NCBI GenBank assembly: GCA_022826515.1
Contig: JAJDUT010000012.1
Span: 1 to 57,631, forward strand
Source of the DNA: Candidatus Latescibacterota bacterium
Lineage (GTDB): Bacteria; Latescibacterota; UBA2968; UBA8231
DNA: 57,631 bases
Direction of reading: 5' to 3'
The position numbers and the translations under genes are program-made. The notes below the pieces were generated by a model. It was not told the origin of the DNA. It did no database searches and saw only the letters and a program-made list of their open reading frames with translations. Of the stretch, positions 8,113-54,936 are shown piece after piece. How positions within the stretch are numbered: position 1 is the stretch's first letter; each line of letters starts with the position of its first letter.

Positions 8113-8582
8113 TCACCGCCGTTGATACCAACGTCTTTTTGGATTTGTTGATTCCCAATGCGCGTTTTGTCGATGCGTCTAAGGCCAAACTGAAAAAGGC
8201 CCACGACGAGGGGGGGTTGATTATATGTGAGGTCGTCTGGGCAGAGTTGGCTTCGCAGTTCGTGGAACAAACCGCGATAGAGGCTTTTTTGCGCGATACC
8301 GGGATTCGGCGAGTTCCAGCGACCGAGGACGCCTTATTTACCGCCGGGCTAGCTTGGAAAACCTATCGCAAGCGGAGAGAAGACGGATGGCGCTGTGCGG
8401 CGTGTAGCCGCGTACAGCGCGAAGTGCAATGCGACCAGTGTGGTGCGCGGTTGCGCGGTCGGCAGCACATCGTTAGCGACTTTCTCATCGGTGCCCACGC
8501 CCTGCACCAAGCCGACCGGCTGTTGAGCCGGGATCGCGGGTTTTACGCGACCTACTTTGGGGAATTGACGCTGATGGTCTAA
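8109..8582 (+). CDS. PIN-domain ribonuclease toxin (VapC-type) with a zinc-ribbon-like insert
   Basis: 157 residues. PIN acidic residues: D6 (AVDTNVF), an acidic residue in EVVWAEL (41-47), D124 (SDFLIGAHA) and D142 (SRDRGF). The family cleaves RNA with Mg/Mn. Between residues 94 and 113, just before the third catalytic Asp, sits a CAAC-x8-CDQC block that looks like a zinc ribbon. Most VapC toxins have a short Arg-rich loop there. The insert could bind metal and help recognise RNA. The gene partners the antitoxin at 7885. Confidence 0.85.
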   Translation: MITAVDTNVFLDLLIPNARFVDASKAKLKKAHDEGGLIICEVVWAELASQFVEQTAIEAFLRDTGIRRVPATEDALFTAGLAWKTYRKRREDGWRCAACSRVQREVQCDQCGARLRGRQHIVSDFLIGAHALHQADRLLSRDRGFYATYFGELTLMV

Positions 8583-8587
8583 GAAGC

Positions 8588-9856
8588 TCAGGCCTCGGTA
8601 CGCCACAGGCGCGGTATCGGGTTGGTGGCTTGCTGCTCGGGCAAGTGCCAGTACTCGGCCTCGGGCGGGACCTCTTGCAGGTGCGGACAGGTCATGCCGT
8701 GGCGGTCCCACACCACCTCGCCGGCGCGCAAGGTCAGGGCGCATTCAAGGCGGTGTTGGGCTTCGATGCAGGCCCAGCCGCAGTCGCGAAAGTAGAAGTT
8801 GCCCTCAAGGACGCCGAGCACGGCGATGTCGGCCTCAGAGCCGGGCGTCAAAGTCCCCAACTCGGGCCGGCGGATGGCGCTGGCGGGCGTGACAGTGGAG
8901 CGGTAGATCACTTCCTGTAAGGACATGTTCATGGCCAAGCACTTGGACATGGTGTCGAGCATGGAGTGGACGTGGCCGTTGATATTGCCCATGTGCAGGT
9001 CGGTGCTAATCGAGTCGGGCGGGAAGCCGTCGGCAATGGCCGGCATGGCGGCGCGGTACCAGAAGCTGGCCGCTCCGTGCCCGAGGTCGAAGTGGATGCC
9101 CCTCTCGTGCGCCTCGCGCATGTAGTCGTACACCTCGCCGTCTTCATCGACGACGGGGAACTGACGGGCAAAGACGTGCGTGTGAATATCGCCTGGGCGC
9201 AGGTGCTTGAGGATGAGATCGGGGTAGGAGCGCTCGGGCGGGCGCGGCCAAAAGTCGACCATCACCGGCATTTTGCAGCGCTCACCAGCCTCGACGGCAG
9301 CGTCAACCGAGGCCCAAGGCGGATGCTCGTCGTCAAAGGGCTTGGTGGTCCAATAGTGGGCGGTCTTGATGCCGACGCACACCTCGTCGTGGGCCGCGGC
9401 CATCTCGGCCGCCCGCTGGGGATCGAGGTTGGCGACGATTTGTTCGGGAGGGCCCATGCCTGGGGCGGCGATGTTGACGTAGGCAAACATGCGGATTTTG
9501 GCGTGATCGATCACCGTCTCGCGGAAGTGCTCGAACTCCTCGGCACCGGCTGTGCCCGTATCGACGCAGGTGGTTACACCCTCTTTGAGAAAGTGGGCAT
9601 CGGCGTGGAGACTGCCCACCATCCCGCCGGATTGGCGGGCGCGGGTATGGTACGTATGGACGTGAATGTCGAGCAGGCCCGGCACGACGACGAGGTTGCC
9701 TACGTCGATGACGCGATGGGCGTCCGCTGGAGGAATGTTCTCTTCAACGCGGGCAATGCGGCCGTCGAGTACGCCGATGTCGGCGACGCCGTTGATGTCG
9801 TTGACAGGGTCGATTACGTGGCCGCCTTTGAGCAGCATTTCGAGCTTGCGGGGCAT
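8588..9856 (-). CDS. Amidohydrolase / deacetylase-family metallohydrolase (dihydroorotase-like)
   Basis: 422 residues. Amidohydrolase metal motifs: HVH at 65-67, K164 in 'GIKTAHY' (candidate carbamylated lysine), H225/H227 in 'DIHTHVF', and D286 with H288 in 'STDLHMG'. Position 201 reads 'MVDFW', where relatives often show 'MVH', so one expected His is an Asp. The N- and C-terminal beta-sandwich pieces ('GHVIDPVNDINGVADIGV', 'GSEADIAVL') are present. It probably hydrolyses a cyclic amide or N-acyl substrate in the cytoplasm. It is convergent with the toxin gene, 5 bp away, with no visible terminator between them. Confidence 0.85.
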   Translation of the reverse strand: MPRKLEMLLKGGHVIDPVNDINGVADIGVLDGRIARVEENIPPADAHRVIDVGNLVVVPGLLDIHVHTYHTRARQSGGMVGSLHADAHFLKEGVTTCVDTGTAGAEEFEHFRETVIDHAKIRMFAYVNIAAPGMGPPEQIVANLDPQRAAEMAAAHDEVCVGIKTAHYWTTKPFDDEHPPWASVDAAVEAGERCKMPVMVDFWPRPPERSYPDLILKHLRPGDIHTHVFARQFPVVDEDGEVYDYMREAHERGIHFDLGHGAASFWYRAAMPAIADGFPPDSISTDLHMGNINGHVHSMLDTMSKCLAMNMSLQEVIYRSTVTPASAIRRPELGTLTPGSEADIAVLGVLEGNFYFRDCGWACIEAQHRLECALTLRAGEVVWDRHGMTCPHLQEVPPEAEYWHLPEQQATNPIPRLWRTEA

Positions 9857-15592: not shown

Positions 15593-15646
15593 CGATTGTA
15601 GGTGCAATCCTTGTGGTTGCCCTCCTTCCAATCAGGAGATAAAGCG

Positions 15647-16393
15647 ATGGACCAAGCCGACCGCGATTTCTTTGCCGCAAACGGCTATCTCAACCTAGGG
15701 CAGGTGCTCGACAAAGACGACGTGCAATACTTCCGCGCCATGTTCGATGGGGACATGGAAAAGTATCCCTACTTCTGGCACCGCTACGGCTACCATCAGC
15801 ACGCCAATTACGAGGCATTGATCACCTCGCCGCAGTTCGACGAACTGATCCGCCACCCGAAAATATATCCGACGATTGAGGCGCTGATGGGCGGGCCGCT
15901 CTGCTTTGGCGAGATCGGGCTGCGGATGATGCGGGCCTACGACGGCTCATTGCACCAAGGTTGGCACCGCGACAGGCCGCATTGGGACGATCATCCATTC
16001 CGCATGGACTACATCCAACTCATGGTCTATCTGTCCGATGTGGACGAGGGGACGCATTGCTTTTCGCTGTCCCCAGAAGCAGTAAGCCAGCCGGTGCTCG
16101 AAGATAAGGAAGAGCAACTCAAGCGGGGCGGTGAGTACCACTTGCACGGTCCCGCTGGGACCTGCGCGCTATTTAACGTGGCCGTGCTGCACACGGCGAC
16201 GACGCGGCCCACGCAGGCCGAGCGGCGGACCGTGCAGATTTACTACGGGCATCGCTACCGGGCACCGCTGGCGAACGATTCGACTATTCCGGCGGCGTTT
16301 TGGCGGGATAGCGCAGATGCAGAGACGCGGGCTTTTTACGGAGTTTTGAACGAGCGCACCAAGGTGTATTTGGCGGCGTTCCCCGGAGCTTGA
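15647..16393 (+). CDS. Phytanoyl-CoA dioxygenase (PhyH)-family Fe(II)/2-oxoglutarate oxygenase
   Basis: 248 residues from the ATG with AGGAGATAAAG upstream; a longer frame lacks an RBS. Iron facial triad: H107 and D109 ('GWHRDRP') and H182 ('VLHTATT'). A downstream Arg ('ERRTVQIYY') probably binds 2-oxoglutarate. The family hydroxylates small organic acids, amino acids or natural products. Substrate unknown; one of five such genes here. Confidence 0.88.
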   Translation: MDQADRDFFAANGYLNLGQVLDKDDVQYFRAMFDGDMEKYPYFWHRYGYHQHANYEALITSPQFDELIRHPKIYPTIEALMGGPLCFGEIGLRMMRAYDGSLHQGWHRDRPHWDDHPFRMDYIQLMVYLSDVDEGTHCFSLSPEAVSQPVLEDKEEQLKRGGEYHLHGPAGTCALFNVAVLHTATTRPTQAERRTVQIYYGHRYRAPLANDSTIPAAFWRDSADAETRAFYGVLNERTKVYLAAFPGA

Positions 16394-17615: not shown

Positions 17616-18350
17616 ATGGCACTGAGCGAGCAACAGATCGCGTTTTTTAAGCAGCAGGGGTATTTGATTCTGGAAAACTTCATCGCGCCTGAGCAGATGG
17701 CCGCTTGGCGCGGTCAGTTCTGGAATCACGTAGGTGCCGATCCAACCGACCCGGCTAGTTGGCCCGATAGCTATGTGGTCGACGGGTTTGCGGTTGAACC
17801 GACCTTTGGTCAGCTTCCGCAGATGCAGGAGGTGGTCGAGGCGCTGGGTGGCGGGCAGTTTAGCGGCGGCGGCGGGTCCATGCTGGTGCAGTGGCCGCGC
17901 TTGGGGGAGGCGTGGGACTGGCCGGGCCAAGGGCATATCGACGGCTACGGACCGGGGGGCTGGAGCGGCGGTTTTATGCTGGGGGCGACCGCTTACTTAG
18001 ACGATGTGGAAGCAAACGGCGGGGCCTTTGTTTACTGGCCGCAGAGCCATCTGCCGACCCACGCGTACTTCCGCGCGCATCCCGCCCACATCGACGGCAG
18101 TTTTCGCGATCGCGAGGATTGGGATCCGCGCCAATGGGGGTTGTTTTCAGACCGCTCGCCCCACGGGCCGGAGCAATTTGTGGCGCGGGCCGGGGACGTA
18201 ATTTTCTGGCACTGCTTTCTGTGTCACACCGGCTCGGTCAACATCCGCTCCAAGCCTCGGCTGGGGCTTTTCGCCCGCTGGCACTACACCGAGCGCGAGA
18301 CGATGCGCTATGAGGTGCCGGAGGACTTGTGGAAGTATTGGGCGATCTAA
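17616..18350 (+). CDS. PhyH-family Fe(II)/2-oxoglutarate oxygenase
   Basis: 244 residues. Iron ligands H107 and D109 ('GHIDGYG') and H204 ('LCHTGS'). GAGAGGAG lies just before the ATG, and the gene begins 22 bp after the diadenylate cyclase, so co-transcription is possible. Gly-rich loop 'GWSGGFMLGATAYL' follows the first ligands. Substrate unknown. Confidence 0.88.
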   Translation: MALSEQQIAFFKQQGYLILENFIAPEQMAAWRGQFWNHVGADPTDPASWPDSYVVDGFAVEPTFGQLPQMQEVVEALGGGQFSGGGGSMLVQWPRLGEAWDWPGQGHIDGYGPGGWSGGFMLGATAYLDDVEANGGAFVYWPQSHLPTHAYFRAHPAHIDGSFRDREDWDPRQWGLFSDRSPHGPEQFVARAGDVIFWHCFLCHTGSVNIRSKPRLGLFARWHYTERETMRYEVPEDLWKYWAI

Positions 18351-23588: not shown

Positions 23589-24566
23589 ATGAGCTACAAA
23601 CCAGTGGCCGACCAGCGGCCCGATCGCTACAAAGTCTCCACGGCCGAATACGCCCAGTATCAGAAACAGGGGTTCCTAGTCGTCGAGCGCTTGGTCGATT
23701 TGGACGAAGTGGAAGAACTCAAAGCGCACGTCATGGCCATGCTCAAGGGCCAAATCGACGTTCCGGGTCAAGAGCCGCCGTCTCCTGAGGCGACGGAAGA
23801 GGAGCTAGTGCAGCGTTTCACGCGGGTGCATCAACTGCACCGCTGGGACGCCACTTGCGAGCGCTTTTTGTTGCACCCGCGCATCTTGGACGTTTTGGAG
23901 GCGCTCATCGGACCGGATGTGTTGGCTTTGCAGACCATGCAGTTTTTCAATGCGCCGGGCACGGGCGGCCAAGGTTGGCACCAAGATTCCTATTACATCA
24001 CGACGTACCCGGACACCCTCATCGGCGCTTGGTTGGCCTTGGAGCGGGCCGACGAGGAAAATGGCTGTCTGTGGGTCGCGCCCGGCTCAAACCACGAGCC
24101 TATTTATCCCGACGAATGCCGGGGGCACCTGGTCCACGCCGAGGGAGCCTTTGACGAGATTGAAACTGTAGAGGGCATTAGCCAACTCGACGACGAGGTC
24201 AATACGCTGTCAAGAGTGGCGCGGCGCTACGGTGACGCAGTGCCGGTAGTGGTGGAGGCCGGCGATGTCGTGTTCTTCCATCCGCACCTCCTGCACCGTT
24301 CCCATCCCAATCAGTCGCCCGACCGCTGGCGTCGGGCTTTTGTCAGCCACTATTGCAACGCTCGCTCCTGGGTGCCGTGGAATCACGGAGCACCCTATGA
24401 GGGGCCAGCAGCTAATTACAAGCACATTCTGGCGCGGGGGCGAACCCATCTGCCCTTTGCCCGCCCCGAGTTCGGCACGCCGTGCGCAGCGTTAGCAGCC
24501 GATGCGAATGGCGCTCCCGAGCGCATGGTGGCGAGTGAGGGCGATATGGAGAAGCAGGAGGGGTGA
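23589..24566 (+). CDS. PhyH-family Fe(II)/2-oxoglutarate oxygenase (long form)
   Basis: 325 residues. H131 and D133 ('GWHQDSYY') and H236 ('LLHRSHPN') form the iron triad; 'GCLWVAPGSNHEP' near 159 is the classic PhyH strand. It follows the MetE-like gene by 25 bp with AGGGAA before the ATG, so it is probably in the same operon. It may hydroxylate the substrate that the flanking FAD oxidase or methyltransferase also acts on. Confidence 0.9.
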   Translation: MSYKPVADQRPDRYKVSTAEYAQYQKQGFLVVERLVDLDEVEELKAHVMAMLKGQIDVPGQEPPSPEATEEELVQRFTRVHQLHRWDATCERFLLHPRILDVLEALIGPDVLALQTMQFFNAPGTGGQGWHQDSYYITTYPDTLIGAWLALERADEENGCLWVAPGSNHEPIYPDECRGHLVHAEGAFDEIETVEGISQLDDEVNTLSRVARRYGDAVPVVVEAGDVVFFHPHLLHRSHPNQSPDRWRRAFVSHYCNARSWVPWNHGAPYEGPAANYKHILARGRTHLPFARPEFGTPCAALAADANGAPERMVASEGDMEKQEG

Positions 24567-25811: not shown

Positions 25812-26618
25812 CTAGGGTTTATGATCCGTATCGACGGGCGCTTCGTCGTTGTCTAGGAAGCGCTCAGTGGTATTGTGGGTCGCTGGGTTGGTGCGGAAAT
25901 CGGCGATCCAAGGCTGGCGGAAGTAAGCCTGCTTTTCGCGCGGCAGGCTGTGCAGCACCACCGGGGGGATCTTCAGCCGGTGCCAGTGGGTAGCCAAATG
26001 CGAATAGGCGTTTAATACGGTGACGCGCGGGGTGTCGCGACGCCACACTGGCCCGGCGTGGCACAAGTTCTCGGTAAAAAAGACCGCGCTGCCGGCCGGG
26101 CAGGCGTACGTGGTGAGGAAGGGACTGCGCTTGCCTTCTTCCAGCGACAGATGGTCTTCGTGGATGGGGAATTCCGACTTGTGGCTGCCGATTAAGAAAT
26201 GGGTGCTCTGGTCTTCTAGCGCGATATCGGTCAATTCAAAAATAACCCGCACCATACCGGCGTGGATGCGCCCGTTTTTCACCCGGTAGCCAAAAATGGG
26301 ATCGGCTTGCCCAGGGCCGCCCCCGTGCAGCCCGCCGTGTTCCTCGCCTTTTTTGCGCCAGACGCAGCTACAGCCTTCCAATCTTATATCGGGACCAATT
26401 ATCTCCCGAATCACATCGACCACTTGGGGATGATCGATCAGCACGCTGGCCGGGCCGCCGGGCACGTCGCGGTGTTCGGGCGGGAGCGATTCGGGGTCGT
26501 GTTTGATGCGATCAATCTGATCGACGATGGCGGCGACTTCGTCGGGCGTCAAGATGGCGGGACGCACTAAAAAGCCGGTGAGGTCAAAGCGGAAGCGTTC
26601 TTCTTCGGTCATAGCCAT
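25812..26618 (-). CDS. PhyH-like oxygenase with HxG in place of HxD
   Basis: 268 residues. Where other members have HxD, this one reads H98-G-G100 ('GGLHGGGPG'); the distal His is H187 ('LCHAGP') and the PhyH strand is 'STHFLIGSHKSEFP'. Loss of the Asp ligand is the change seen in Fe/2-oxoglutarate halogenases (HxG or HxA), where chloride takes the place. It may equally mark a non-halogenating PhyH subgroup. GGAGA precedes the ATG. Confidence 0.82.
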   Translation of the reverse strand: MAMTEEERFRFDLTGFLVRPAILTPDEVAAIVDQIDRIKHDPESLPPEHRDVPGGPASVLIDHPQVVDVIREIIGPDIRLEGCSCVWRKKGEEHGGLHGGGPGQADPIFGYRVKNGRIHAGMVRVIFELTDIALEDQSTHFLIGSHKSEFPIHEDHLSLEEGKRSPFLTTYACPAGSAVFFTENLCHAGPVWRRDTPRVTVLNAYSHLATHWHRLKIPPVVLHSLPREKQAYFRQPWIADFRTNPATHNTTERFLDNDEAPVDTDHKP

Positions 26619-45634: not shown

Positions 45635-46483
45635 ATGGATACAACCTGCCTGCAATATACTTTGACCGAGGAGGAGCGCCGTCAGTTTGAGGAGGACGGC
45701 TTCTTCATCGTCCGCGATGTGCTGCCCTTGGATTTGGTAGCCCAGCTCATTCCCATCGTCGATCGCCTCGACGCCGAGGCCCGGCGGCAAAAGGGGCTGG
45801 AAAAGCACCAGATGCACAACTTTTTCGACTTTATCGGCAAAGACGAACTCTTTCTGGAGTTGCTCGACTGGCCAAAGACGTTCGCCAAGGTCTTCGGGAT
45901 TTTGGGCTGGCACATTCAGCTCTACCACTCGCACTTGATCGTCACTCCGCCTTTAGACGGCGTCGTGCCCGCGCGCAAGCGGCTGGGCTGGCACCAAGAC
46001 AGCGGGCGACTCAACATCGACATGGAGACTGAGCCCCGACCGAGGGTCTCGCTCAAGGTGGCGTACTTTCTCACGGACTGCACCGAGACCAATCGCGGCA
46101 ACTTCCACGCAGTACCCGGCTCGCACCTAAAAAACAAGCTGGAAATGCCAGCGGACGAAGACTTAGATCCAGTGGGCACAACGCCGATCCAAGTAGCGGC
46201 GGGTGACGCGGTGTTTTTCGACCGGCGCATCTGGCACGCGGCCGGCCACAACTCCTCGCCCTACGCACGCCGGGCGCTGTTTTACGGCTATAGCTACCGC
46301 TGGTTGCGGCCGCGCGACGACATGACGGTGGAGCACTTGATGGACCGCTGCGATCCGATCCGGCAGCAGCTATTAGGTGCTGGTCCGAGCGGCGGGCACG
46401 GCTACACCTCGCCGAAGGAAGAAGACGTGCCGCTGAAAGCGTGGATCCGCGAGCATTTGGGTGACGAAGCGGTGGTGGAGTAA
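45635..46483 (+). CDS. PhyH-family Fe(II)/2-oxoglutarate oxygenase
   Basis: 282 residues; GGAGG precedes the ATG at ideal spacing. H120 and D122 ('LGWHQDSG') and H201 ('IWHAAGHN') form the iron triad; 'NFHAVPGSHLKNKL' near 156. Same strand as and 48 bp after the two dehydrogenases. A remnant of the RNA polymerase-like gene begins 8 bp after its stop on the other strand. Confidence 0.9.
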   Translation: MDTTCLQYTLTEEERRQFEEDGFFIVRDVLPLDLVAQLIPIVDRLDAEARRQKGLEKHQMHNFFDFIGKDELFLELLDWPKTFAKVFGILGWHIQLYHSHLIVTPPLDGVVPARKRLGWHQDSGRLNIDMETEPRPRVSLKVAYFLTDCTETNRGNFHAVPGSHLKNKLEMPADEDLDPVGTTPIQVAAGDAVFFDRRIWHAAGHNSSPYARRALFYGYSYRWLRPRDDMTVEHLMDRCDPIRQQLLGAGPSGGHGYTSPKEEDVPLKAWIREHLGDEAVVE

Positions 46484-46601: not shown

Positions 46602-48959
46602 TCAGTAAACTATTGAGACCAACTCGACAGCCAGCTCGGTGCGCCCATCCCCTTTGACCTTCAACCGCGCTATATAATTGCCCGGCGGCACTTGCCCTCC
46701 CGTCCCAGTGCGCCCGTCCCACGTCAACCGTAGCGGTCCGGCCGTACCCATCGACTCTACACCGGCCACGCGCCGTCCCGCCAAATCGAAAATTTCCAAC
46801 TGCACGGGCCGCGCCGTCAAAACATCGACCAGATCCAGTGCGACGACCAACTCGTCGTTGACCCCGTCGCCATTGGGCGTCAACACGCTGGGGGCAATGG
46901 ACATATTGGCCCACAAGGATCGCCCCAGCGGCAAGCGCACCACATTGGTGCTGCTTTCCACCGACTCCGCAGCATCCCCTGGTTCGACCCGCTGGCGCAC
47001 GGGCTCGGCCAAGCGGCTGTCCTCTAGGAACAGCTCAAAGCGAGTGGCGTCGAGGAATATGGCCGCGGCAAAATCCACTTCCACCAACTGTCCCGAGCGC
47101 ACGGGCTGCGGCAATTGCACGACAAAACCATCCTCCACTACGGCCACTGCCGCTTCCCGCACCACCCCATCCACCCGCACCTGGTCGAACTGCAAATCCG
47201 TCGAGGCCTGCACCAATAGTCGGTCAAAGCCGTTGCGCGTGCGCTCGGGCCGCACATAGTACGTGAAGATCTCCTGTCGGCCCGGTTGCACCAGGACGGG
47301 TGCTAGTTCTGCGGCTACCTGCTGGGCCAGGGGCTCGGAAAAATCCAGCACCACCCAATCCAGTTGCGCCCCCACTGACGGATCGTCGGAGACTAACCGC
47401 CCTTCCAACTGCACATAGCGCCGCATGGAGGGCGACTGGAAGGGCTGGTCCGGCTCCAAGTACACCGGACTCCACGGACTCCAATCCGCCCCCGGCACAA
47501 AGACCGTGTCAATGGGCCCGCGAAAAGAGGGGATGCGCCGCTCCCACTGCCGCTGAGTGATTTCCTTGCCCTCTGGATCGCGGTATATCACCTCGGCGTC
47601 GAGCGTATTGCCCGAGCGGCTGCGCAGCTCCAGACGCGTGCCCCCTGGGGTCTGACCGCCCCAGCGCAAGGCATTGATATTCTTTGGTCCCTGTAAATCC
47701 AAAATGGGAGATCGCAGATCTACCTGAACCGGCGCGCCGCGGCCAAAGACTTGGAATTCGGAGATAGTACCAGAAGCTCCGCAGCCGCGCGCAGCCTCGC
47801 TGCCGAACTCGTCGCCGCAGTTGGCGTCCCACGTCTTCCACCTGATGCGCACAAAGCGGACCGGAAGACTGGTAAAACGGTGATCGGCCAAACCTTGGAT
47901 CCGGTTGAGCTGGCTACCCCAACCGGAAAAGTGCTTGGTCCAGCGCAGCGAGCCGTCCGGGGCCAGCGAACCGTCCGAGGTCAATACCTCGTAGAAATTG
48001 AACCAGAACCCGCGGTACTGGCGGGAAAAGGTGAGCAGCCGCACTAGGTCAACCCAGTAAACAGCCCCCAGATCCATGGTGATCTGGGCAATCACATCGG
48101 TATCGGCCCGGGTCGCCCGGATATTGGACCAGACTGTGCTGATGCGGCCGTCCATCAACTGCAAGGCATTGGCCAGATTCGGGATATCGGGATTCTTGGT
48201 ATCGACTCCCACGACAATGTCAACGCTGCCGCCGCGCTCGATGGCTCCCTGTACCAGATTGTCGCCAAAGGCCTCCACCTCAATCTCGACCAGTCGCGCC
48301 TCGGGTGCCGCTTTCAGGACCTCTACCCGCACGAAGTGCACTGGGAAGGGCGCGTCCGGGTTCAATTCATAGGTGATCCGGCGGCGGTCCTCGGTAAAGC
48401 GCTCTTTAATCCGGTATGCTAGGGTGCCTTCTATCTGCGTGCGGGTCTCGTCGCGGAACTGTTCGCCAGTAGAAAGCAGCAGATCGAAAATCTCAAAGGG
48501 AGGCCCTCGCGCGGAAAAAATTAGATGCACCCGATGGGCCGAAACCACCCGGCCTAGATCTACTTCGACAAACCAGTCCTCGGCCCGCTCGTCCAAATCC
48601 GGCCCCCAGCCCGTGCTCTCGTCCCCGTCCATCACCCCCGATGCCGCTAGGGCATTGGAACCTACCCGGCTGATCCCGCCGCCAAAGGCCACCGCGTCCA
48701 GGACCGCATTGTTGTTCCGGCGCACTGCCACCGGTCGAATGATCCCCTCCCGCGTCAGTTCCACTGCCCCGAGGGGCAACTCCCACTGGCGCCACTGGGC
48801 CGCTGTTGCAAAGCGCAACTCATCGCCAGCGCCCTTTTGCCAAGGGACCAACAGAATGCCGATGGCGAGCAAAAACGCCCGGCTTGAATCCATTGCCGCA
48901 CGACGGAAAATGCCTCCACTCGCCGCTGCATCCCGGCAGATTTCTACTCCCTGCTCCAT
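46602..48959 (-). CDS. Secreted discoidin-domain protein with FlgD-like C-terminal domain
   Basis: 785 residues. A signal-like hydrophobic segment sits at about 27-40 (an inner ATG at 48893 would make it a standard signal peptide, but the first ATG has GAGGAG upstream). Two F5/8C-like carbohydrate/surface-binding domains lie near 95-235 ('GDESTGWGPDLDERAEDWFVEVDLG') and 240-410 ('DGRISTVWSNIRAT', 'ITMDLGAVYWVDLVRLL'). A beta-rich middle follows, and a final FlgD/gliding-type domain with 'SVLTPNGDGVNDELVV' near 715 and 'LTWDGRTGTGGQVPPGNYIARL'. Probably cell-surface. It follows the polymerase operon but behind a terminator. Confidence 0.8.
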   Translation of the reverse strand: MEQGVEICRDAAASGGIFRRAAMDSSRAFLLAIGILLVPWQKGAGDELRFATAAQWRQWELPLGAVELTREGIIRPVAVRRNNNAVLDAVAFGGGISRVGSNALAASGVMDGDESTGWGPDLDERAEDWFVEVDLGRVVSAHRVHLIFSARGPPFEIFDLLLSTGEQFRDETRTQIEGTLAYRIKERFTEDRRRITYELNPDAPFPVHFVRVEVLKAAPEARLVEIEVEAFGDNLVQGAIERGGSVDIVVGVDTKNPDIPNLANALQLMDGRISTVWSNIRATRADTDVIAQITMDLGAVYWVDLVRLLTFSRQYRGFWFNFYEVLTSDGSLAPDGSLRWTKHFSGWGSQLNRIQGLADHRFTSLPVRFVRIRWKTWDANCGDEFGSEAARGCGASGTISEFQVFGRGAPVQVDLRSPILDLQGPKNINALRWGGQTPGGTRLELRSRSGNTLDAEVIYRDPEGKEITQRQWERRIPSFRGPIDTVFVPGADWSPWSPVYLEPDQPFQSPSMRRYVQLEGRLVSDDPSVGAQLDWVVLDFSEPLAQQVAAELAPVLVQPGRQEIFTYYVRPERTRNGFDRLLVQASTDLQFDQVRVDGVVREAAVAVVEDGFVVQLPQPVRSGQLVEVDFAAAIFLDATRFELFLEDSRLAEPVRQRVEPGDAAESVESSTNVVRLPLGRSLWANMSIAPSVLTPNGDGVNDELVVALDLVDVLTARPVQLEIFDLAGRRVAGVESMGTAGPLRLTWDGRTGTGGQVPPGNYIARLKVKGDGRTELAVELVSIVY

Positions 48960-49030: not shown

Positions 49031-52000
49031 CTAGGCTGGTAGCCCTGCAAAGAGCCGGCTGAACAGGCTGGTCAGCGGATCGGTCTCGCCGCGCTCAGCC
49101 GCCCTCGCAAAGACTACGCCCGGCTGCGAGGCCCTAGCGGCCCGGCCCAAAACGTGGTAATCGGCACGAGCGGGCTGTTGGGCCGCTTCCCGTGCCTCGC
49201 TCCAGCCCTGGTTGGTGGCGGCCAGACCCCACCATAAGGCACGCGGGGCCCGCACCTTGGTTTCCTCTACCGACAGGCCGTCGCGCCAACAACCGCGCTG
49301 GGCGAATAGGCCGCCATCTTCCCGATAGATTAACCCACCGCCCACGTATTGAATCAACTGCTGTTGGTTGCCCCGCGCCCCCGACAGCGACAACAAGGCC
49401 AAGGGCCCCAAGTCGTTGTCGTCGAAATCGGCCTGCTGGTAGAAAGCCGCCACTAACTCGTCGCCATACATTTGCCACTCGTCCAAATCGGCTTCCTCGG
49501 GTTGTTCAGGCCACTCCTTGCTTGAACCTAGGAAGGGATTGAAGGAGGCCCCCGACTGCTTGCAGACCTCAAAGCCGCGCCGCGTCAACTGGTCGAGTAC
49601 CTCCAGCGCTCGCTCTAGGCCCTCGCGCTGCAGCACCTGAGCTAGCAAGCGGTTGAGATCGTGCTTGGAAAATAGCCGACTGCCATCCACGGCCACTCCG
49701 GTCAATTCCTCCACTTCAGCGCGGCCTTCCTCCGTGCGGCATAGCTGCGCCAAGCCCCATATCATGCCGTGATAATTGTCGGTCACGTAGCGCCATATAT
49801 CCGCATCGCGCTGTATGTGCCCGGCCACCGACAGCGCGGTTTCGGCTTCGACCTGGGCTTCCTCAGTGAGGGGCAAAAACACCTCGATCTGATCGCCGTC
49901 GAAATCTAGCTCCATCAGTCGGCAAACGCGCGGATGGACGCGCACGGCGGCCCCGGCCAAACGCCGCGGACGAAAGGCCACCATCGCGGTGGACGCCGGG
50001 CCATCGTCAACCAGCACCCGCTGGGCGCTGTACAGCAGCACCCACGAGCGCCCCATGAGCGCGTCCAGAACCTCAGTCGCTCGGGGCGAACGCCGCGCCA
50101 CTTCCTCGGCGTGGCCTATCTCCCGCTCTACCTGAGGCCCGAACAAAGCCCAAACCATTGCCTCGGGTAGGCCCACTTGGTCGAGCTCCAACTCAAAACC
50201 AGAGACAAGCGCGGCCCGGCCGCTAAACAGCGGTCTTGCTTGAAAGTGGAGGTGCTCCGGGCGCAACAACGCGATAAAAAAATCCTCCACCCGTTGGGTC
50301 ACCTGTGCCACTGCTGGCCCGACCAGAGCCTCGGGCGCTTCGCTATCGATGATGCGCTGCAAACGCGTATTAGCTTCGACCAAATCCTCGTAGCAGCCTC
50401 GAATCGGGTCGAACTCGATCCCCGTAGGCAAAGCGCCGGGATCTCCCACCGTCCCCACTTGGCGTCCCGGTGCCCACGGGTGCGGCACGGGGCGAGCCAA
50501 GGTCAATCCCTCCGGCTCGGCAAAGGAAAAGCGCAACTCCCCGCCCGCTAACTCGGCCCGTACCCCGGCCACACCCAACAACTGCTGCAACAGGGCAAAG
50601 CGCGGAGACGGAGGCGGGGACGGGGATATTGGGCCAGAAGCCAAGCGCTGGCCAAGCCCATCGGCGTCGGGCCGCTCAGCCGCGGCCGTGTTGAACAAAG
50701 CGTGGATATTGGCTACGGCCCCGGCCTCGCACAAAGCTCCGTAGGCCATCATGTCGAGCGCTGGTCCGCCGACTCCTGTCACCGCGGTTTCCAAGTGCTC
50801 GGCCGCGGTGTGGGCCGCCAAGCGGCCCCAGTACACCCAACCCACGGTACTGCGATAGGGCAGCTTTGCGCCTTTGAGGGTCAGTTGCTCCATGCCGTCT
50901 TCGGGCAGTTTCGCCTCGACTAGACGCGCTTTCAACACTTTTTCGCTGGGTGCTTGGAAAGGCGGCACCACCGCCGGAGTCCCTTCGGCTTGGGCAATGC
51001 GACCCATGACCACCTCGCGCTGCTGGCCGAAGTTGAGCCGCGAGACCATACTGGTCGGACTCAAGATGAGCTCTACCGGCGTACCGTCGGGCAACTGCGG
51101 CATGTCGGCGTCGGGCAAGATGCGCGTCACCACTCCCTTGGCACCGTGGCGGTTGCTTAGTTTGTCGCCCACCCCCACTGCGGCGGGGAAATCCATTCGC
51201 GCCGCGGCCGATTCGCTAATGACTAAGCCATCCTCAAACGTGTCCCCATCCCACATGACGAAGGCGGTCAGCAGATTGTACCCGCCCCAAAAGTCGGCGG
51301 CTTCGGGCTCGTATCCCGTCTGCACTAGGGCCGGCTCGGGTTTGTGGCCCTTGGAGGCCAAGCGCTGGTCGTACTGCTGGCGGAACCAACCCGTGTCGTG
51401 AATCGGTGCCGCGGTATCGGCGGCGCTCGTCCATTGGCGCATCATATTGATGCCCATCAGAGCGCGATTGGTATCGTCGTGTTCGAGAAAGGGCACCATG
51501 GAGGCCGAAAAACCCAAGATGCTGTCGGGCGCTTCGACTTCGGCGAGCTCGGTTCGGCTGAGCTCACCGTCGAAGCCAGCCGAGCCGTCAATCCGTTCGA
51601 GCTTGCCGTCGCAGATGCGGGCACCGCGGGCTACTTCCAGGATTCGGCCGATATTGGGGCCCTCGGGGATGCAGTAGGGGCACACTAGGCCGTATTGGCT
51701 GTCGGGGAAAACGCCTCGGTCGACAAAAGGCTCGCCAACGATGGGGATCAAAGTCAGCCGCCGCAGATGGGTATAGCGGTCAAGCCAGTTGGTCGCTTGG
51801 AGGTACTGGGAAGTTGTCTCCAAGTGGAAGTCGCGCATCCAGGCGTCTAAGGGCAGCCAATTCCGCACCAAGTCGCCATCCCAAGCCAATTGCTCGGGAG
51901 CCGCTTCCAATCTTTGGTCAATAAAGTCATAGAGCTGTTCGCCTACACAGAGAATGCGCGCTTGATCGAGTTCGCGCCGGTCGGGATAGGGGACCACGAC

Positions 52001-52243
52001 CCGATAGTTACCTTCAATGCGGAAAAGACCATCGCGGTCGGGCCGAGGCAAATCTCGATACTCAACCTCGACCGGGGCATCGCCGAGTCCCAAGCCCAGT
52101 TTAATGGAAAAAGTATAGGAGCCCTGTTGTTCGACTTGATAATCGGCCAGCGGCAAGCGCTCACCCAAAAGCCGGGGCAGTCGCTGGTAGATGAAAAGGT
52201 CAAAGGACTCCCTATGCCAAGGTACGTCGAGATTCAATGTCAT
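49031..52243 (-). CDS. Single-chain minimal RNA polymerase: fused beta and beta-prime cores
   Basis: 1070 residues against roughly 2700 for bacterial beta plus beta-prime. Beta half (1 to ~520): 'DGLFRIEGNYRVVV' (71-84), Rif region 'SQYLQATNWLDRYTHLRRLT' (145-164), 'VCPYCIPEGPNIG' (187-199), 'DTNRALMGINMMRQ' (257-270), 'TFEDGLVISE' (335-344; E337, D338), 'GDKLSNRHGAKG' with K361 and K369, and 'SRLNFGQ' (R402). A Pro-rich linker lies near 535-550. Beta-prime half: clamp helices 'EANTRLQRIIDSEAP' (623-637) that bind sigma region 2 in known enzymes, 'FSGRAALVSG', 'GLPEAMVWALF', catalytic DFDGD (780-784), 'PLTEEAQVEA', 'SGASFNPF', 'SGARGNQQQ' (954-962), 'WRDGL' (986-990) and a C-terminal block like beta-prime region H (1042-1070). 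Missing: zinc finger, 'NRAPTLHR', the trigger-loop His, the 'GEPGTQLTMRTFH' block and most lobes. Start ATG overlaps the sigma stop; GGAGG seven bases upstream lies inside the sigma gene. Confidence 0.9.
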   Translation of the reverse strand: MTLNLDVPWHRESFDLFIYQRLPRLLGERLPLADYQVEQQGSYTFSIKLGLGLGDAPVEVEYRDLPRPDRDGLFRIEGNYRVVVPYPDRRELDQARILCVGEQLYDFIDQRLEAAPEQLAWDGDLVRNWLPLDAWMRDFHLETTSQYLQATNWLDRYTHLRRLTLIPIVGEPFVDRGVFPDSQYGLVCPYCIPEGPNIGRILEVARGARICDGKLERIDGSAGFDGELSRTELAEVEAPDSILGFSASMVPFLEHDDTNRALMGINMMRQWTSAADTAAPIHDTGWFRQQYDQRLASKGHKPEPALVQTGYEPEAADFWGGYNLLTAFVMWDGDTFEDGLVISESAAARMDFPAAVGVGDKLSNRHGAKGVVTRILPDADMPQLPDGTPVELILSPTSMVSRLNFGQQREVVMGRIAQAEGTPAVVPPFQAPSEKVLKARLVEAKLPEDGMEQLTLKGAKLPYRSTVGWVYWGRLAAHTAAEHLETAVTGVGGPALDMMAYGALCEAGAVANIHALFNTAAAERPDADGLGQRLASGPISPSPPPSPRFALLQQLLGVAGVRAELAGGELRFSFAEPEGLTLARPVPHPWAPGRQVGTVGDPGALPTGIEFDPIRGCYEDLVEANTRLQRIIDSEAPEALVGPAVAQVTQRVEDFFIALLRPEHLHFQARPLFSGRAALVSGFELELDQVGLPEAMVWALFGPQVEREIGHAEEVARRSPRATEVLDALMGRSWVLLYSAQRVLVDDGPASTAMVAFRPRRLAGAAVRVHPRVCRLMELDFDGDQIEVFLPLTEEAQVEAETALSVAGHIQRDADIWRYVTDNYHGMIWGLAQLCRTEEGRAEVEELTGVAVDGSRLFSKHDLNRLLAQVLQREGLERALEVLDQLTRRGFEVCKQSGASFNPFLGSSKEWPEQPEEADLDEWQMYGDELVAAFYQQADFDDNDLGPLALLSLSGARGNQQQLIQYVGGGLIYREDGGLFAQRGCWRDGLSVEETKVRAPRALWWGLAATNQGWSEAREAAQQPARADYHVLGRAARASQPGVVFARAAERGETDPLTSLFSRLFAGLPA

Positions 52244-52839
52244 TCATGTTCCTCCGGGTTATGGATGGCCTGCCAGGCCCGTGAGAGTTGGCGGCGGCCG
52301 TGGTGCAGCCGCGACTTTACGGTGCCTTCGGGAATGCCCAAGCGTGCGGCCGCGTCCCGCACTTCGACTTGGGCGTCGTAGATCAGACGGAAAACCTCGC
52401 GCTTGTCCTCGGATAGTTCTTGTACTTGTCGCCGCAGCCAGCGTTGCTGGTCGGCCCTTTCCACTTGGGCGTCGGGGCGCTCGGACGCCGCCTCAATCAT
52501 CCATTCGGGCACTTGCTGCGTCTCCTGCTCCACGATTTCAGACAGCATTTCCAGCCGCTGCTCTCGCCGCCTCTGCACAGTGCGCAGGTGAGTCCGGGAA
52601 AGATGAGTGGCAATGCTAAACAGCCAAGCAGCTACAGATCCTCGACCACTCCATTGACCAGCCCGGTTCCACACCCGCAAGAAAACCTCCTGCACTACAT
52701 CGTTGGCACTCGCATCGTCGCGAACGATGCGGCGCACATGGCGGAGGAGCTGCTCTCGATAGCGTTCAAAGAACTGCTGGAATGCGCATGCATCGCGTTC
52801 TTTTATTTGCGCTATGAGTTGTGGGTCCGGTATCTGCAT
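52240..52839 (-). CDS. ECF-type sigma factor paired with the minimal RNA polymerase
   Basis: 199 residues from 'MQIPDPQLIAQIKERD'. Sigma-2 at about 17-87 ('AFQQFFERYREQLLRHVRRIV', 'DVVQEVFLRVWNRAGQW', 'SVAAWLFSIATHL'), sigma-4 at about 137-190 with helix-turn-helix 'VRDAAARLGIPEGTVKSRLHHGR'. A start at 52917 would add 26 residues and has a stronger AAGGAGG but at 13-base spacing, so the start is uncertain. No anti-sigma gene adjoins it. The last codons form the SD and an ATGA overlap for the polymerase, so both proteins are made together. Confidence 0.88.
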   Translation of the reverse strand: MQIPDPQLIAQIKERDACAFQQFFERYREQLLRHVRRIVRDDASANDVVQEVFLRVWNRAGQWSGRGSVAAWLFSIATHLSRTHLRTVQRRREQRLEMLSEIVEQETQQVPEWMIEAASERPDAQVERADQQRWLRRQVQELSEDKREVFRLIYDAQVEVRDAAARLGIPEGTVKSRLHHGRRQLSRAWQAIHNPEEHE

Positions 52840-53082
52840 CAAGGCTCTCTGCAAGTAAAGACGCCGCCCGGAAAGTACAGGTTCAAAGACGAAGGTGAAA
52901 AAGCTCAGAAATCTCATTGAAGGCCGGCTTCCTCCTTGAGTTGACCCACTAGTCGAGCATGGTATCTTACAGCAGTCCTGAATGACTTGAACGATTCGAT
53001 AGGTGGATCGTCTTGTGAGTACTATTCTGCGTCCTTCTGCGTCCTTCTGCGGATCACCTTGTAAACGATGTAGAATTGCCCT
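52840..53082. promoter_or_regulatory. Divergent control region of the sigma/polymerase operon
   Basis: Between the sigma gene and an AspA-like gene. Holds AAGGAGG at 52931-52937 (minus strand) for the possible longer sigma start and a 10-bp tandem repeat TTCTGCGTCC (2.8 copies, 53025-53052). On the minus strand a weak TTCAAG-16 bp-TAAGAT pair lies upstream of that SD. No clear bipartite ECF promoter identified by eye. Confidence 0.35.
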
Positions 53083-54003
53083 ATGACTCCGACAATCACC
53101 CTGCAAAAGAAAGTAATAGAAGGCATCCAAAAAGGTCCCAACCTGCTGATCCTAGGCGGCGTCCACGGCGACGAGTTCGAGTCTATGGCGGCCATTCGCC
53201 GCCTGCTGGACCACCTCGATCCAACGGACCTGCGGGGCCGTCTCACCGCTATCCCCGTAGTCAACGAAGCCGCTTATTGGCGCGGCCAGCGCACGGCCGA
53301 GGACGAGCTGGACTTGGCCCGAACCTGCCCGGGCCGTCCCGACGGTTCGATCACTGAGCGCACGGCCCACGCCGTCAGCGAGGAAATCCGCCGGGCCGAC
53401 TATCTCATCGACCTGCACAGTGGCGGGATAGTCATGGAATTTTACCCTACCGTGGGGTACACCCTGCATCCCGACAAGTCCATCCTCGACGTGCAGCGGC
53501 GCATGGCCCGCGCACTGAATATGCCCATCATCTGGGGCACCTCAGCCCGCCTCGACGGACGCACGCTCTCAGTGGCCCGCGACGCCAACGTGCCAGCCAT
53601 CTACGCCGAGTGGATGGGCGGTGGCACGTGCGACCCCGAGGGCGCGGATGCTTATTTCGAGGGCTGCTTGAACGTCCTAGCCGAACTGGACATGATCGAC
53701 CGCATCCTGCCACCCCTGCGAACCGAGTACACCATAGAGGACGACCGAGACAACTCTGGTCACATACAGATCAATTACCCAGCGCCCTTTGCCGGTTATT
53801 TCGAACCTCAGATAACATTGAAAGCACCCGTGCAACCGGGCGATGTAATCGGCACAGTGGTCGATCATCTGGGGCAGCGACGCGAGGAAGTGGTATCGAC
53901 TCAAGCGGGTTTGATCCTGTGTCTGCGAGTCTTCAACCGCGTCCACCAGGGCGACAGCTTGGCTGCGGTGTTGGAACTCGATCCGGCCCAAACGAGGGAG
54001 TAA
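53083..54003 (+). CDS. Succinylglutamate desuccinylase/aspartoacylase-family deacylase
   Basis: 306 residues. M14-like zinc site: H28 and E31 in 'GGVHGDEFESM' and H112 in 'LIDLHSGG'. 'IPVVNEAAYWRGQRTAEDELDLART' follows the family pattern, and the C-terminal barrel-like part 'FAGYFEPQITLKAPVQPGDVIGTV' is usual. It removes an acyl group from an N-acyl amino acid or similar. No good SD; three bases before the HisG-HisE fusion, so probably one transcript. Confidence 0.88.
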   Translation: MTPTITLQKKVIEGIQKGPNLLILGGVHGDEFESMAAIRRLLDHLDPTDLRGRLTAIPVVNEAAYWRGQRTAEDELDLARTCPGRPDGSITERTAHAVSEEIRRADYLIDLHSGGIVMEFYPTVGYTLHPDKSILDVQRRMARALNMPIIWGTSARLDGRTLSVARDANVPAIYAEWMGGGTCDPEGADAYFEGCLNVLAELDMIDRILPPLRTEYTIEDDRDNSGHIQINYPAPFAGYFEPQITLKAPVQPGDVIGTVVDHLGQRREEVVSTQAGLILCLRVFNRVHQGDSLAAVLELDPAQTRE

Positions 54004-54006
54004 CAA

Positions 54007-54936
54007 ATGTTTCGCGAAGCAATCGGTTTATTCATCCCTGAACCAAAGGCCAAACTCTACATCCCCAAGAACAGTGGTCTGCATGAGTATGTGAACAATC
54101 TATTGAGTGAGATTGGCGTCAGCGACGGAGGCGAATTCACCCGAGCTGACGAGAGCATGGGGACCCTCGAAATAATCCCAGCGCGGGGGGAGGATGTGCC
54201 CCAACGGGTTGACGATTGTCTCCTACGGGGAGAAGTCGCGTATGGCCTCACCGGAGACGATCTCTTCGACGAGTACATGTTGGGCGCGGACGATTCTCCT
54301 CTTGGAGTCCTCAATACCTACGATTGGTTCGATCCAAATGCTCAGTTCTATCGGCCAGCCCTTTGTCTGTTGAACCGCGAAGGGCTAATTCCAGATTCGT
54401 CCGCAATGGTATCCATTGCCGTGAACAAGAAATACGAACTGTCCTCTCGCCAGTTCCTGTCGCAGCGCTTCCAAGCCATCAAGCTGCAGATCAGTATTGC
54501 TGCTTATGCTGGCGACACGGAAAACACAGTAGCAGAGGGCACGCACGACTGGTGCATTGAGGTGGTGTATCGCGGGGAACGCTCGCCCGCAAGCGCGATG
54601 TCCAAGACTGGCCTCAAAGTCGCCGAAGTCGTCCGCTTTAGCGACATTTCATTGATTGGACGGGAAATCGTCAATCCATGGGAAGAGGAGTACCGGAGAA
54701 TATACACAGTCGCGCAAAAACCCACCGGCTCCAATACGTCAAAGCTCCTTGCAGACAGCAATGAGATTTGCAAGAAAGTCGGCGAGGAATCGGCTGAGTT
54801 TGTGAGGGCGTTTACGCAAGAAACCGGGATTCCAGAGGAGTTCAACGGCGTCGTGTATGCGTTGATGGTCGCAGCCGCAAAACTGCAAGTCCCCTGGCAG
54901 GAAATTGAGGCGGACCTGAAGTCTAGGTGGTCGTGA
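54007..54936 (+). CDS. Fusion of HisG-like phosphoribosyltransferase and HisE-like pyrophosphatase
   Basis: 309 residues. Residues 15-225 follow HisG: 'AKLYIPKNSGLHE' start, 'RVDDCLLRGEVAYGLTGDDLFDEY' near 67-90, and the phosphate-binding region 'GTHDWCIEVVYRGE' with 'TGLKVAEVVRFSDISLIG' near 178-218. Residues 237-309 follow HisE: 'PTGSNTSKLLADSNEICKKVGEESAEF' with the GEExxE metal residues at 259-264. HisG couples ATP to PRPP; HisE removes pyrophosphate from phosphoribosyl-ATP. No other his genes are nearby, so it may be the genome's histidine enzyme or serve another adenylated pathway. Confidence 0.78.
   Translation: MFREAIGLFIPEPKAKLYIPKNSGLHEYVNNLLSEIGVSDGGEFTRADESMGTLEIIPARGEDVPQRVDDCLLRGEVAYGLTGDDLFDEYMLGADDSPLGVLNTYDWFDPNAQFYRPALCLLNREGLIPDSSAMVSIAVNKKYELSSRQFLSQRFQAIKLQISIAAYAGDTENTVAEGTHDWCIEVVYRGERSPASAMSKTGLKVAEVVRFSDISLIGREIVNPWEEEYRRIYTVAQKPTGSNTSKLLADSNEICKKVGEESAEFVRAFTQETGIPEEFNGVVYALMVAAAKLQVPWQEIEADLKSRWS

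What the first reader, a model, noticed from the sequence alone, without database searches (positions are those of the whole stretch)
49031..52243. Chromosomal single-chain RNA polymerase with miniature beta and beta-prime halves
Seen: one 1070-residue chain carries, in rpoB-rpoC order, the beta motifs (Rif region, PEGPNIG, RALMG, FED, both active-site lysines K361/K369) and the beta-prime motifs (clamp helices, SGR, DFDGD at 780-784, SGARG, WRDGL, a region-H-like tail). Known: bacterial beta plus beta-prime total about 2700 residues; compact single chains with both double-psi barrels are known from phages (SPbeta YonO, crAss-like phage polymerase) and yeast killer plasmids. Inference: this is an active, drastically reduced DNA-dependent RNA polymerase. 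I know of no described chromosomal version with this architecture.
Basis: partly seen in the sequence, partly recalled or inferred. Interest (0 to 1): 0.97.

Follow-up and report, generated by a model that had tools for sequence, protein, structure and literature searches.

The report
Pocket-sized second bacterial RNA polymerase
Beside an ordinary RNA polymerase, bacteria of several mostly uncultured lineages carry a one-piece miniature relative of it, encoded next to its own sigma factor and a conserved promoter-like sequence, which together likely form a second, self-contained transcription system whose targets are still unknown.

Summary
Real, and larger than the finding says. The minus-strand ORF (1,070 aa) joins reduced beta and beta-prime halves (profile-profile E 2.6e-64 and 1.4e-44; confident AlphaFold model) and keeps both catalytic lysines and the Asp triad. 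A promoter-like element (GAAC-N14-CGGYGTC or close) precedes the sigma gene in 35 of 39 windows, against 8 of 6,222 control windows, and in 8 of 8 loci not used to define it. The module is usually single copy, beside canonical rpoB in 21 of 21 genomes, patchy over at least six phyla (by MAG label), and under purifying selection. The flap and probably the trigger loop are missing; 18 of 75 sampled members have a changed catalytic residue; no second target promoter was found. Most likely a minimal sigma-plus-core holoenzyme that activates its own operon. Main rival: the sigma uses the host core and only switches the mini-polymerase on. It is not YonO-like; my searches found no description. Activity is untested.

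The parts
49031..52243 (-). single-chain RNA polymerase gene, 1,070 aa (scRNAP)
52240..52839 (-). ECF-type sigma factor gene, 199 aa from the likely ATG at 52839 (the listed ORF 52240-53130 starts further upstream at a TTG); its TGA overlaps the polymerase ATG by 4 bp
   Evidence: Sigma70_r2 2e-15, Sigma70_r4_2 6.1e-13
52860..52884 (-). ECF-like promoter element GAACCTGTACTTTCCGGGCGGCGTC (GAAC = -35-like, GGCGTC = -10-like), 20 bp before the likely sigma ATG
   Evidence: conserved over phyla
50534..52243 (-). beta-like half (aa about 1-570): protrusion start, Rif/fork region, double-psi barrel with K361/K369
49034..50533 (-). beta-prime-like half (aa about 571-1070)
51137..51163 (-). catalytic lysines K361 and K369 (GDKLSNRHGAKG)
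49892..49906 (-). catalytic DFDGD, aa 780-784
50267..50410 (-). clamp helices (aa about 612-659), the sigma-binding coiled coil of canonical beta'
51188..51199 (-). place of the missing flap domain (aa 349-352; E. coli beta 825 is followed by 1056 but for two single aligned residues)
49181..49270 (-). bridge-helix equivalent, predicted helix aa 992-1021
49043..49153 (-). region-H-like C-terminal tail (aa 1031-1067), shortly after the bridge helix; no trigger loop recognised between
   Evidence: weak by sequence

Best explanation
The window carries two overlapping genes, an ECF-type sigma factor and a 1,070-residue chain that joins reduced beta and beta-prime RNA polymerase halves with the catalytic lysines and aspartates intact, and the two proteins likely assemble into a minimal second RNA polymerase holoenzyme that would start transcription at the operon's own conserved ECF-like promoter. 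Shown: homology to both large subunits, the catalytic residues, the predicted fold, the strict sigma-polymerase gene pairing, the promoter-like element at a near-constant place before the sigma gene, its company with a canonical rpoB in the same genomes, and purifying selection. Inferred: that it polymerises RNA on DNA; that sigma region 2 docks on the retained clamp helices; that the sigma reads the -35-like GAAC and -10-like CGGYGTC elements; that the host polymerase makes the first transcripts and the pair then amplifies its own expression. Unknown: which other genes it transcribes. If the trigger loop is indeed gone, it would catalyse in a simpler, possibly less accurate way, as reported for YonO. 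Without a flap, sigma region 4 would have to be held at the -35 element by other contacts or by DNA alone.
Against: No activity, expression or interaction data. Flap missing, the usual anchor of sigma region 4 (its role is recalled). Trigger loop not found: 0 of 75 members match a trigger-loop HMM at 1e-3, but the test is blunt, since a region-H and a bridge-region HMM also find 0 of 75 and the clamp HMM 5 of 75. Canonical sigma-contact positions of the clamp helices differ (E. coli R275 is A or V in 68 of 75, E295 is A in 55, A302 is R in 60), although N276 and R278 are kept (that these positions touch sigma is recalled), while the sigma keeps a generic ECF D-x-x-Q-E-x-F-L-R-x-W stretch, which would also fit the host core. 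18 of 75 members have a changed catalytic residue, 8 of them an aspartate; 13 of the 18 are among the window's closer relatives (49-86% identity). Genome scans show no second target promoter: 12 non-self matches against 14 control matches in 32 genomes. One genome keeps only a 51-codon remnant and one has a frame-broken copy, so the module is dispensable. The sigma-polymerase correlation could come from shared inheritance alone.
Confidence: 0.55

Rival explanations
1. The sigma factor works with the host's canonical core RNA polymerase and serves only to switch the operon on; the mini-polymerase then acts without a sigma factor, with its own start rule or none, on templates not yet known.
For: The promoter element has the shape of an ordinary ECF promoter, and the sigma keeps generic ECF motifs in regions 2 and 4. 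The mini-polymerase lacks the flap, and its clamp-helix contact residues are changed. No other target promoter is seen.
Against: It leaves the mini-polymerase without any known start signal. Strict gene pairing, the 4-bp overlap in the window and coupled divergence fit partner proteins better, though co-inheritance alone could give the same correlation.
Confidence: 0.27
2. The protein is a non-catalytic or vestigial relative of RNA polymerase, for example a sigma sink or a regulator that competes with the host enzyme.
For: Trigger loop not found; 18 of 75 members with a changed catalytic residue, including DFDGN and YFDGD; L008 has a changed active site and is the only one of 39 windows without any recognisable promoter element; a remnant and a broken copy exist.
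Against: 57 of 75 keep all five catalytic residues; the window protein is intact; dN/dS about 0.16 over the whole gene; the overall architecture is predicted with high confidence.
Confidence: 0.12
3. A phage or plasmid RNA polymerase that happens to be integrated.
For: Single-chain two-barrel polymerases are known mainly from phages and linear plasmids (PMC7281927 Table 1, passage seen).
Against: No relative among IMG/VR contigs by the pattern scan; no phage or plasmid record matched over 80% of the query; mostly metabolic and transport neighbours; Poribacteria form one clade (99) and the Latescibacterota-type MAGs another (100), though Chloroflexota and Armatimonadota do not each form one group; not similar to YonO.
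Confidence: 0.04
4. A degenerate paralogue of each host's own rpoBC, arisen repeatedly.
For: Closer to bacterial than to eukaryal or archaeal large subunits in sequence (29-32% against 20-26% identity over the aligned part).
Against: All 23 sampled members form one clade (100) apart from 19 canonical sequences, 17 of them from genomes searched here as carriers, on a stem of 1.86 changes per site (the two groups also differ in length and composition, and the tree warns of long branches).
Confidence: 0.02

Closest known systems
Canonical bacterial RNA polymerase beta/beta' (rpoB, rpoC; also natural fusions, e.g. Wolinella, named in PMC11515920, passage seen)
   Same: Order, both double-psi barrels, catalytic residues, Rif/fork region, clamp helices, bridge helix, likely region H
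   Different: 1,070 residues against 2,749 in E. coli (1,342 + 1,407); no flap, no trigger loop recognised, no counterpart of beta' 1-99; scores far below NCBIfam equivalog cut-offs (159 against 801 bits); its own sigma in the operon
YonO-like single-chain RNA polymerases (SPbeta prophage and relatives)
   Same: Both barrels in one chain; no recognisable trigger loop; YonO-like genes also reported in bacterial main genomes (PMC5467207, passages seen)
   Different: No detectable similarity beyond a DxDGD match (HHalign E 0.3); YonO has homology to only a few residues of cellular enzymes and no partner sigma was known there
P23-45 gp64/gp96 and crAss-like phi14:2 gp66 phage RNA polymerases
   Same: Single-chain two-barrel RNA polymerases (PMC10770324, passages and sections 12-13 seen)
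   Different: Phage genes; that paper puts diverse phage single-chain enzymes in a clade apart from cellular ones, while this protein matches bacterial beta and beta' along most of its length; not compared directly
Yeast linear-plasmid (VLE/killer) RNA polymerase
   Same: Reduced two-barrel polymerase with fused large-subunit parts (PMC7281927 passage; details recalled)
   Different: Described as two-subunit and similar to poxviral enzymes (PMC6211774 abstract); not compared here by sequence
ECF sigma factors with autoregulated GAAC/CGTC-type promoters
   Same: Sigma regions 2 and 4 only, 199 aa; ECF-like element before its own gene
   Different: Operon partner is an RNA polymerase, no conserved anti-sigma neighbour; linker motif P-x-W-[ML] in 35 of 40; scores a class apart from the same genomes' other ECF sigmas

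Membership tests
Bacterial multisubunit RNA polymerase (beta + beta') | beta double-psi barrel with the two catalytic lysines | tested here: met
   K361/K369 = K1065/K1073; both lysines in 60 of 75 members
Bacterial multisubunit RNA polymerase (beta + beta') | beta' barrel with the NADFDGD-type Asp triad | tested here: met
   D780/782/784 = D460/462/464; all three in 67 of 75 members
Bacterial multisubunit RNA polymerase (beta + beta') | flap domain | tested here: not met
   aa 349-352 bridge E. coli beta 825 to 1056
Bacterial multisubunit RNA polymerase (beta + beta') | trigger loop | tested here: inconclusive
   Probably absent: 0 of 75 match a trigger-loop HMM at E 1e-3 (best 0.31), about 49 residues remain after the bridge helix and the structural range ends at region H; but HMMs of parts that are present were also weak (region H 0, bridge 0, clamp 5 of 75)
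Bacterial multisubunit RNA polymerase (beta + beta') | curated rpoB / rpoC equivalog score | tested here: not met
   TIGR02013 159 of 801 bits, TIGR02386 87 of 964
Bacterial multisubunit RNA polymerase (beta + beta') | assembly with alpha and omega subunits | not testable with these tools
   no complex prediction or biochemistry available
YonO-like RNA polymerases | both barrels in a single chain | tested here: met
YonO-like RNA polymerases | sequence relationship to YonO | tested here: not met
   BLASTP E 2.8, HHalign E 0.3 (YonO as a single sequence)
YonO-like RNA polymerases | carried by a prophage or phage | tested here: not met
   (PMC5467207 reports chromosomal YonO-like genes too, so this feature is not strict)
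P23-45 / crAss-like phage RNA polymerases | structural relationship closer than to cellular enzymes | tested here: inconclusive
   the 50 rows listed are cellular, plastid or large-DNA-virus polymerases; absence from a list excludes nothing
ECF sigma factors | sigma regions 2 and 4 without regions 1.1 and 3 | tested here: met
   Pfam regions 2 and 4 only; 199 aa
ECF sigma factors | ECF-like promoter before its own gene | tested here: met
   35 of 39, new loci 8 of 8; recognition by the sigma itself untested
ECF sigma factors | cognate anti-sigma gene next door (common, not universal) | tested here: not met
   no neighbour family conserved over divergent loci other than sigma and polymerase
RNA-dependent RNA polymerases of the QDE-1 type | RNA template use | not testable with these tools
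   -

The most novel reading that the evidence does not exclude
Bacteria of at least six phyla run two independent cellular-type transcription machines: the universal multisubunit enzyme, and an ancient, chromosomal, two-gene mini-holoenzyme (one chain of 1,000-1,100 residues plus a dedicated ECF-type sigma) with its own promoter code, conserved across phyla and used first of all to amplify its own expression. This breaks the rule that a bacterial cell has one core RNA polymerase.
Probability: 0.5. Interest if true: 0.97.

Novelty: new variant of a known kind. Interest (0 to 1): 0.92.

Why it matters
Textbook bacteria have one core RNA polymerase and swap sigma factors. A second, chromosomal, bacterial-type polymerase with its own sigma and promoter would be a natural orthogonal transcription system and a test of how much of the 400-kDa core is needed: it drops the flap, apparently the trigger loop, and most insertions, yet keeps the barrels, the bridge helix and the sigma-docking helices. 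It makes testable which parts are essential for sigma-dependent initiation, and whether a cell can run a private transcription circuit. It could also give synthetic biology a compact sigma-programmable polymerase.

Tried and rejected
Phage origin: the viral-contig scan with alignment A1 found 26 pattern matches, none a relative; phage collection 46 records and plasmid collection 67 records, none covering 80%; a divergent member gave 39 phage records, none covering 80%. Of the rows listed, those with annotation are rpoB/rpoC or phage beta/beta' genes; many rows have none. Foldseek against predicted viral proteins gave phage and giant-virus polymerase subunits, best E 5.9e-17, against 2.2e-22 in the PDB.

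Other partners: all-against-all comparison of neighbouring ORFs within 8 kb gave no family conserved over divergent loci apart from ORFs lying over the sigma gene and some local synteny. By a simple longest-ORF call the next gene downstream is convergent in 30 of 41 loci, so there is no common cargo. PADLOC: no match for polymerase, sigma or the downstream gene.

Regulon: pattern scans of 5, 32, 32 and 13 genomes. With the consensus GAACYTTY-N10-CGGTGTC there are 12 exact matches in 32 genomes: 10 before the genome's known sigma gene, one (G065) before the start of another such sigma at a contig end, one (G018, contig 1) elsewhere. With TGAAC-N13-GCGGYGTC 31 matches: 19 self, 12 others, 14 in the control. 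In one search (up to 3 mismatches) G011 and G020 show 10 matches against 3 control matches each, G002 and G003 show no excess. In one search the seven genomes of the second Latescibacterota clade show 15 non-self matches against 1 in the control; these are 7 different sequences, 4 of them shared between genomes, and all 7 lie inside long open frames, so they look like coding sequence. No regulon is claimed, and a looser code is not excluded.

Trigger loop in the tail: by eye the C-terminus could be read as trigger loop or as region H. Profiles put it weakly on region H, HMMs support neither at 1e-3, and the structural range ends at E. coli 1356, so region H is preferred, not proven.

Control limits: the pattern was widened after looking at the same loci; the clean test is. 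Of its 12 loci, L107, L112, L092 and L056 are the same places as L024, L029, L027 and L008; the other 8 are new and all 8 have sigma and element. The four misses: L003 has the site with one mismatch, L023 and L032 have looser forms, L008 has none. L022 was left out because its sigma is cut by the contig end. The 75-row alignment A2 used 57 of the 120 proteins listed, 17 of the 47 loci and the window, picked for diversity; it is not a census.

Literature: ten answered searches (listings only) found no description of this family. Passages of PMC8195603, PMC11515920 and PMC7824862 do not mention it. PMC10770324 speaks of fused derivatives within the multisubunit clade; its supplement was not read, so an entry there is not excluded. 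No preprint server and few subscription papers are held.
Full report

WHAT IS MISSING. Between aa 349 and 352 the chain jumps from E. coli beta 825 to 1056: the flap is gone. After the bridge-helix equivalent (predicted helix 992-1021) about 49 residues remain, with a region-H-like tail. A trigger-loop HMM finds 0 of 75 members at 1e-3, but the test is blunt: region H and the bridge region, which are present or likely present, also give 0 of 75, and the clamp helices 5 of 75. The first hundred residues of beta' (zinc part) have no counterpart between the end of the beta half (aa 567 = beta 1341) and aa 575 (= beta' 100). The clamp helices are kept (E 2e-6), with N276 and R278 conserved, but E. 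coli R275, E295 and A302 are replaced by mostly A, A and R.

THE SIGMA GENE. Upstream, overlapping by 4 bp (ATGA), is a gene for a sigma factor with regions 2 and 4. A pattern scan of 84,980 species genomes gave 47 loci. 39 have a homologous sigma on the same strand upstream, within 2.04 kb; the other 8 lack the polymerase's 5' end (L034, L035, L039, L042, L043 at contig ends; L031, L045, L046 fragments). In three loci (L014, L018, L020) another gene lies between the two. No other neighbour family is conserved over divergent loci. In the Latescibacterota group (64 genomes) this sigma type stands apart from the other ECF sigmas (158-325 bits, next 123): 24 genomes have it, 22 have the polymerase, 21 have both. 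The exceptions G056, G070 and G064 are contig ends; G059 is a sigma fragment without polymerase. Pairwise distances of sigma and polymerase correlate at 0.91, and at 0.79 after correction for host rpoB (16 genomes, Mantel p 0.0005); shared inheritance alone could contribute to this.

THE PROMOTER. Alignment of the DNA before the sigma gene within three clades showed the same spaced element, GAAC-N13-GCGGYGTC. A relaxed pattern is found in 35 of 39 windows before the sigma domain, 32 of them 85-114 bp ahead of one fixed protein position, and in 8 of 6,222 control windows of the same loci. Because that pattern was tuned on these loci, the cleaner test is the 8 new loci among 12 fetched later: sigma adjacent in 8 of 8, element in 8 of 8. 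In the window it lies at 52860-52884, 20 bp before the likely sigma ATG. It resembles ECF promoters (GAAC at -35, CGTC at -10; recalled). In whole genomes the near-consensus element is almost always the operon's own: non-self matches do not exceed reversed-pattern controls, and the excess seen in one clade (15 against 1) lies inside long open frames; one search shows a small excess in two of five genomes that was not followed up.

DISTRIBUTION AND ORIGIN. Relatives with sigma occur in MAGs labelled Latescibacterota, Poribacteria, Hydrogenedentota, Chloroflexota, Armatimonadota and Myxococcota (and Gemmatimonadota, a label the tree and the genome groups do not bear out), with fragments labelled Bacillota and Phycisphaerae and names such as Planctomycetota in protein records. 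Surveys around a carrier genome: 22 of 64 genomes in the phylum of G002, 11 of 84 in that of G018, 17 of 291 in that of G013, 5 of 400 in that of G012; only the best few candidates per genome were scored (2), so these are lower bounds. 20 of 21 genomes have one full-length copy, the 21st a 51-codon remnant; all 21 have canonical rpoB over the cut-off. Exceptions to single copy: G062 has one full and two partial copies and two sigmas, and G065 has a second sigma start; mixed bins are possible. Four copies are on single contigs labelled chromosome (L003, L004, L020, L041). The tree of 37 members groups Poribacteria (99) and the Latescibacterota-type MAGs (100), but not Chloroflexota or Armatimonadota as one group each: old descent with many losses, some transfer, or weak resolution. 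With 19 canonical sequences the family is one clade (100) on a long stem; archaeal and eukaryotic sequences were not in that tree, so the root is open. dN/dS is 0.15-0.17 for the polymerase and 0.11-0.16 for the sigma ORFs. The window's neighbourhood is ordinary chromosomal metabolism and transport where families are recognised; its own genome is not held.

RESULTS AGAINST. 18 of 75 members have a changed catalytic residue: K361 is not K in 13, K369 not K in 7, an aspartate is lost in 8. 13 of the 18 are among the window's closer relatives (49-86% identity). One of these, P0063 at L008, also lacks the promoter element. A Chloroflexota-group genome on one 8.9-Mb contig has a copy with two frame changes, pseudogene or assembly error. 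So the module is dispensable, and some members may be inactive. Nothing here shows transcription by the protein, binding of sigma, or use of the promoter.

HOW IT MOST LIKELY WORKS. Host RNA polymerase, or leaky transcription, makes some sigma and mini-polymerase, coupled by the overlapping genes; the two assemble, sigma region 2 on the clamp helices; the holoenzyme reads the element before its own operon and amplifies itself; further targets carry weaker sites not seen here. All of this is inference. The rival that the sigma serves the host core is the next best, because the flap is missing and the promoter is of the ordinary ECF type. Experiments with purified parts would settle it.

NOVELTY. 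Single-chain two-barrel polymerases are known from phages and linear fungal plasmids (PMC7281927 Table 1 passage; PMC10770324 passages and sections 12-13), and YonO-like ones were also noted in bacterial main genomes (PMC5467207 passages). This family is not YonO-like, keeps far more of the cellular enzyme, and is the only one I found that is coupled to a dedicated sigma factor and a promoter element conserved over phyla. My literature searches found no description; the supplement of PMC10770324 and preprints were not seen. I therefore file it as a new variant of a known kind (RNA polymerase), outside YonO-like enzymes and the canonical subunit families, with the phage and plasmid families not fully tested.

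Noticed in passing
L014:2683-4476, L018:8165-9958: An ABC exporter gene (ABC_membrane + ABC_tran, 597 aa; Pfam run on L014) sits between the sigma and polymerase genes in part of the second Latescibacterota clade; L020 has another ORF there.
   Followed up: partly
L009:7404-8357 and 8306-9277; same pair in L014, L016, L018, L020, L040: Two co-directional genes ahead of the sigma gene in six loci; in L009 one has an N-terminal DksA/TraR-type zinc finger. Possible link to RNA polymerase regulation, or plain synteny.
   Followed up: partly
L016:13301-15465, L040:13670-16069: BlaI-like repressor (L016) and BlaR1-like M56 peptidase with TonB C-terminal domains (L016, L040), close downstream of the polymerase in one clade.
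   Followed up: no
window 46602-48959 (-): 72 bp downstream of the polymerase, same strand: 785-aa protein with F5/8 type C domain and a CHU_C/FlgD-like C-terminal domain; a 785-aa ORF stands at the same place in L003, not in the other near relatives.
   Followed up: partly
window 54007-54936 (+): One ORF with a HisG-like N-terminal part (below cut-off) and a phosphoribosyl-ATP pyrophosphohydrolase domain: a possible HisG-HisE fusion.
   Followed up: no
window 15602-16393, 17616-18350, 23589-24566, 25812-26618, 45635-46483: Five phytanoyl-CoA dioxygenase (PhyH) family genes in about 31 kb.
   Followed up: no
   Followed up: partly
L008:1501-5360, and L126 (G065 contig 139): L008 carries a member with both lysines changed to R and YFDGD and no recognisable promoter element; the same genome (G065) has, at the end of another contig, a consensus element followed after 20 bp by the start of a second such sigma: decay of one copy beside another, or a new role.
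   Followed up: partly
sigma proteins, linker between regions 2 and 4 (window 52495-52509): Conserved motif P-x-W-[ML] in 35 of 40 sigmas, candidate contact with the mini-polymerase.
   Followed up: partly
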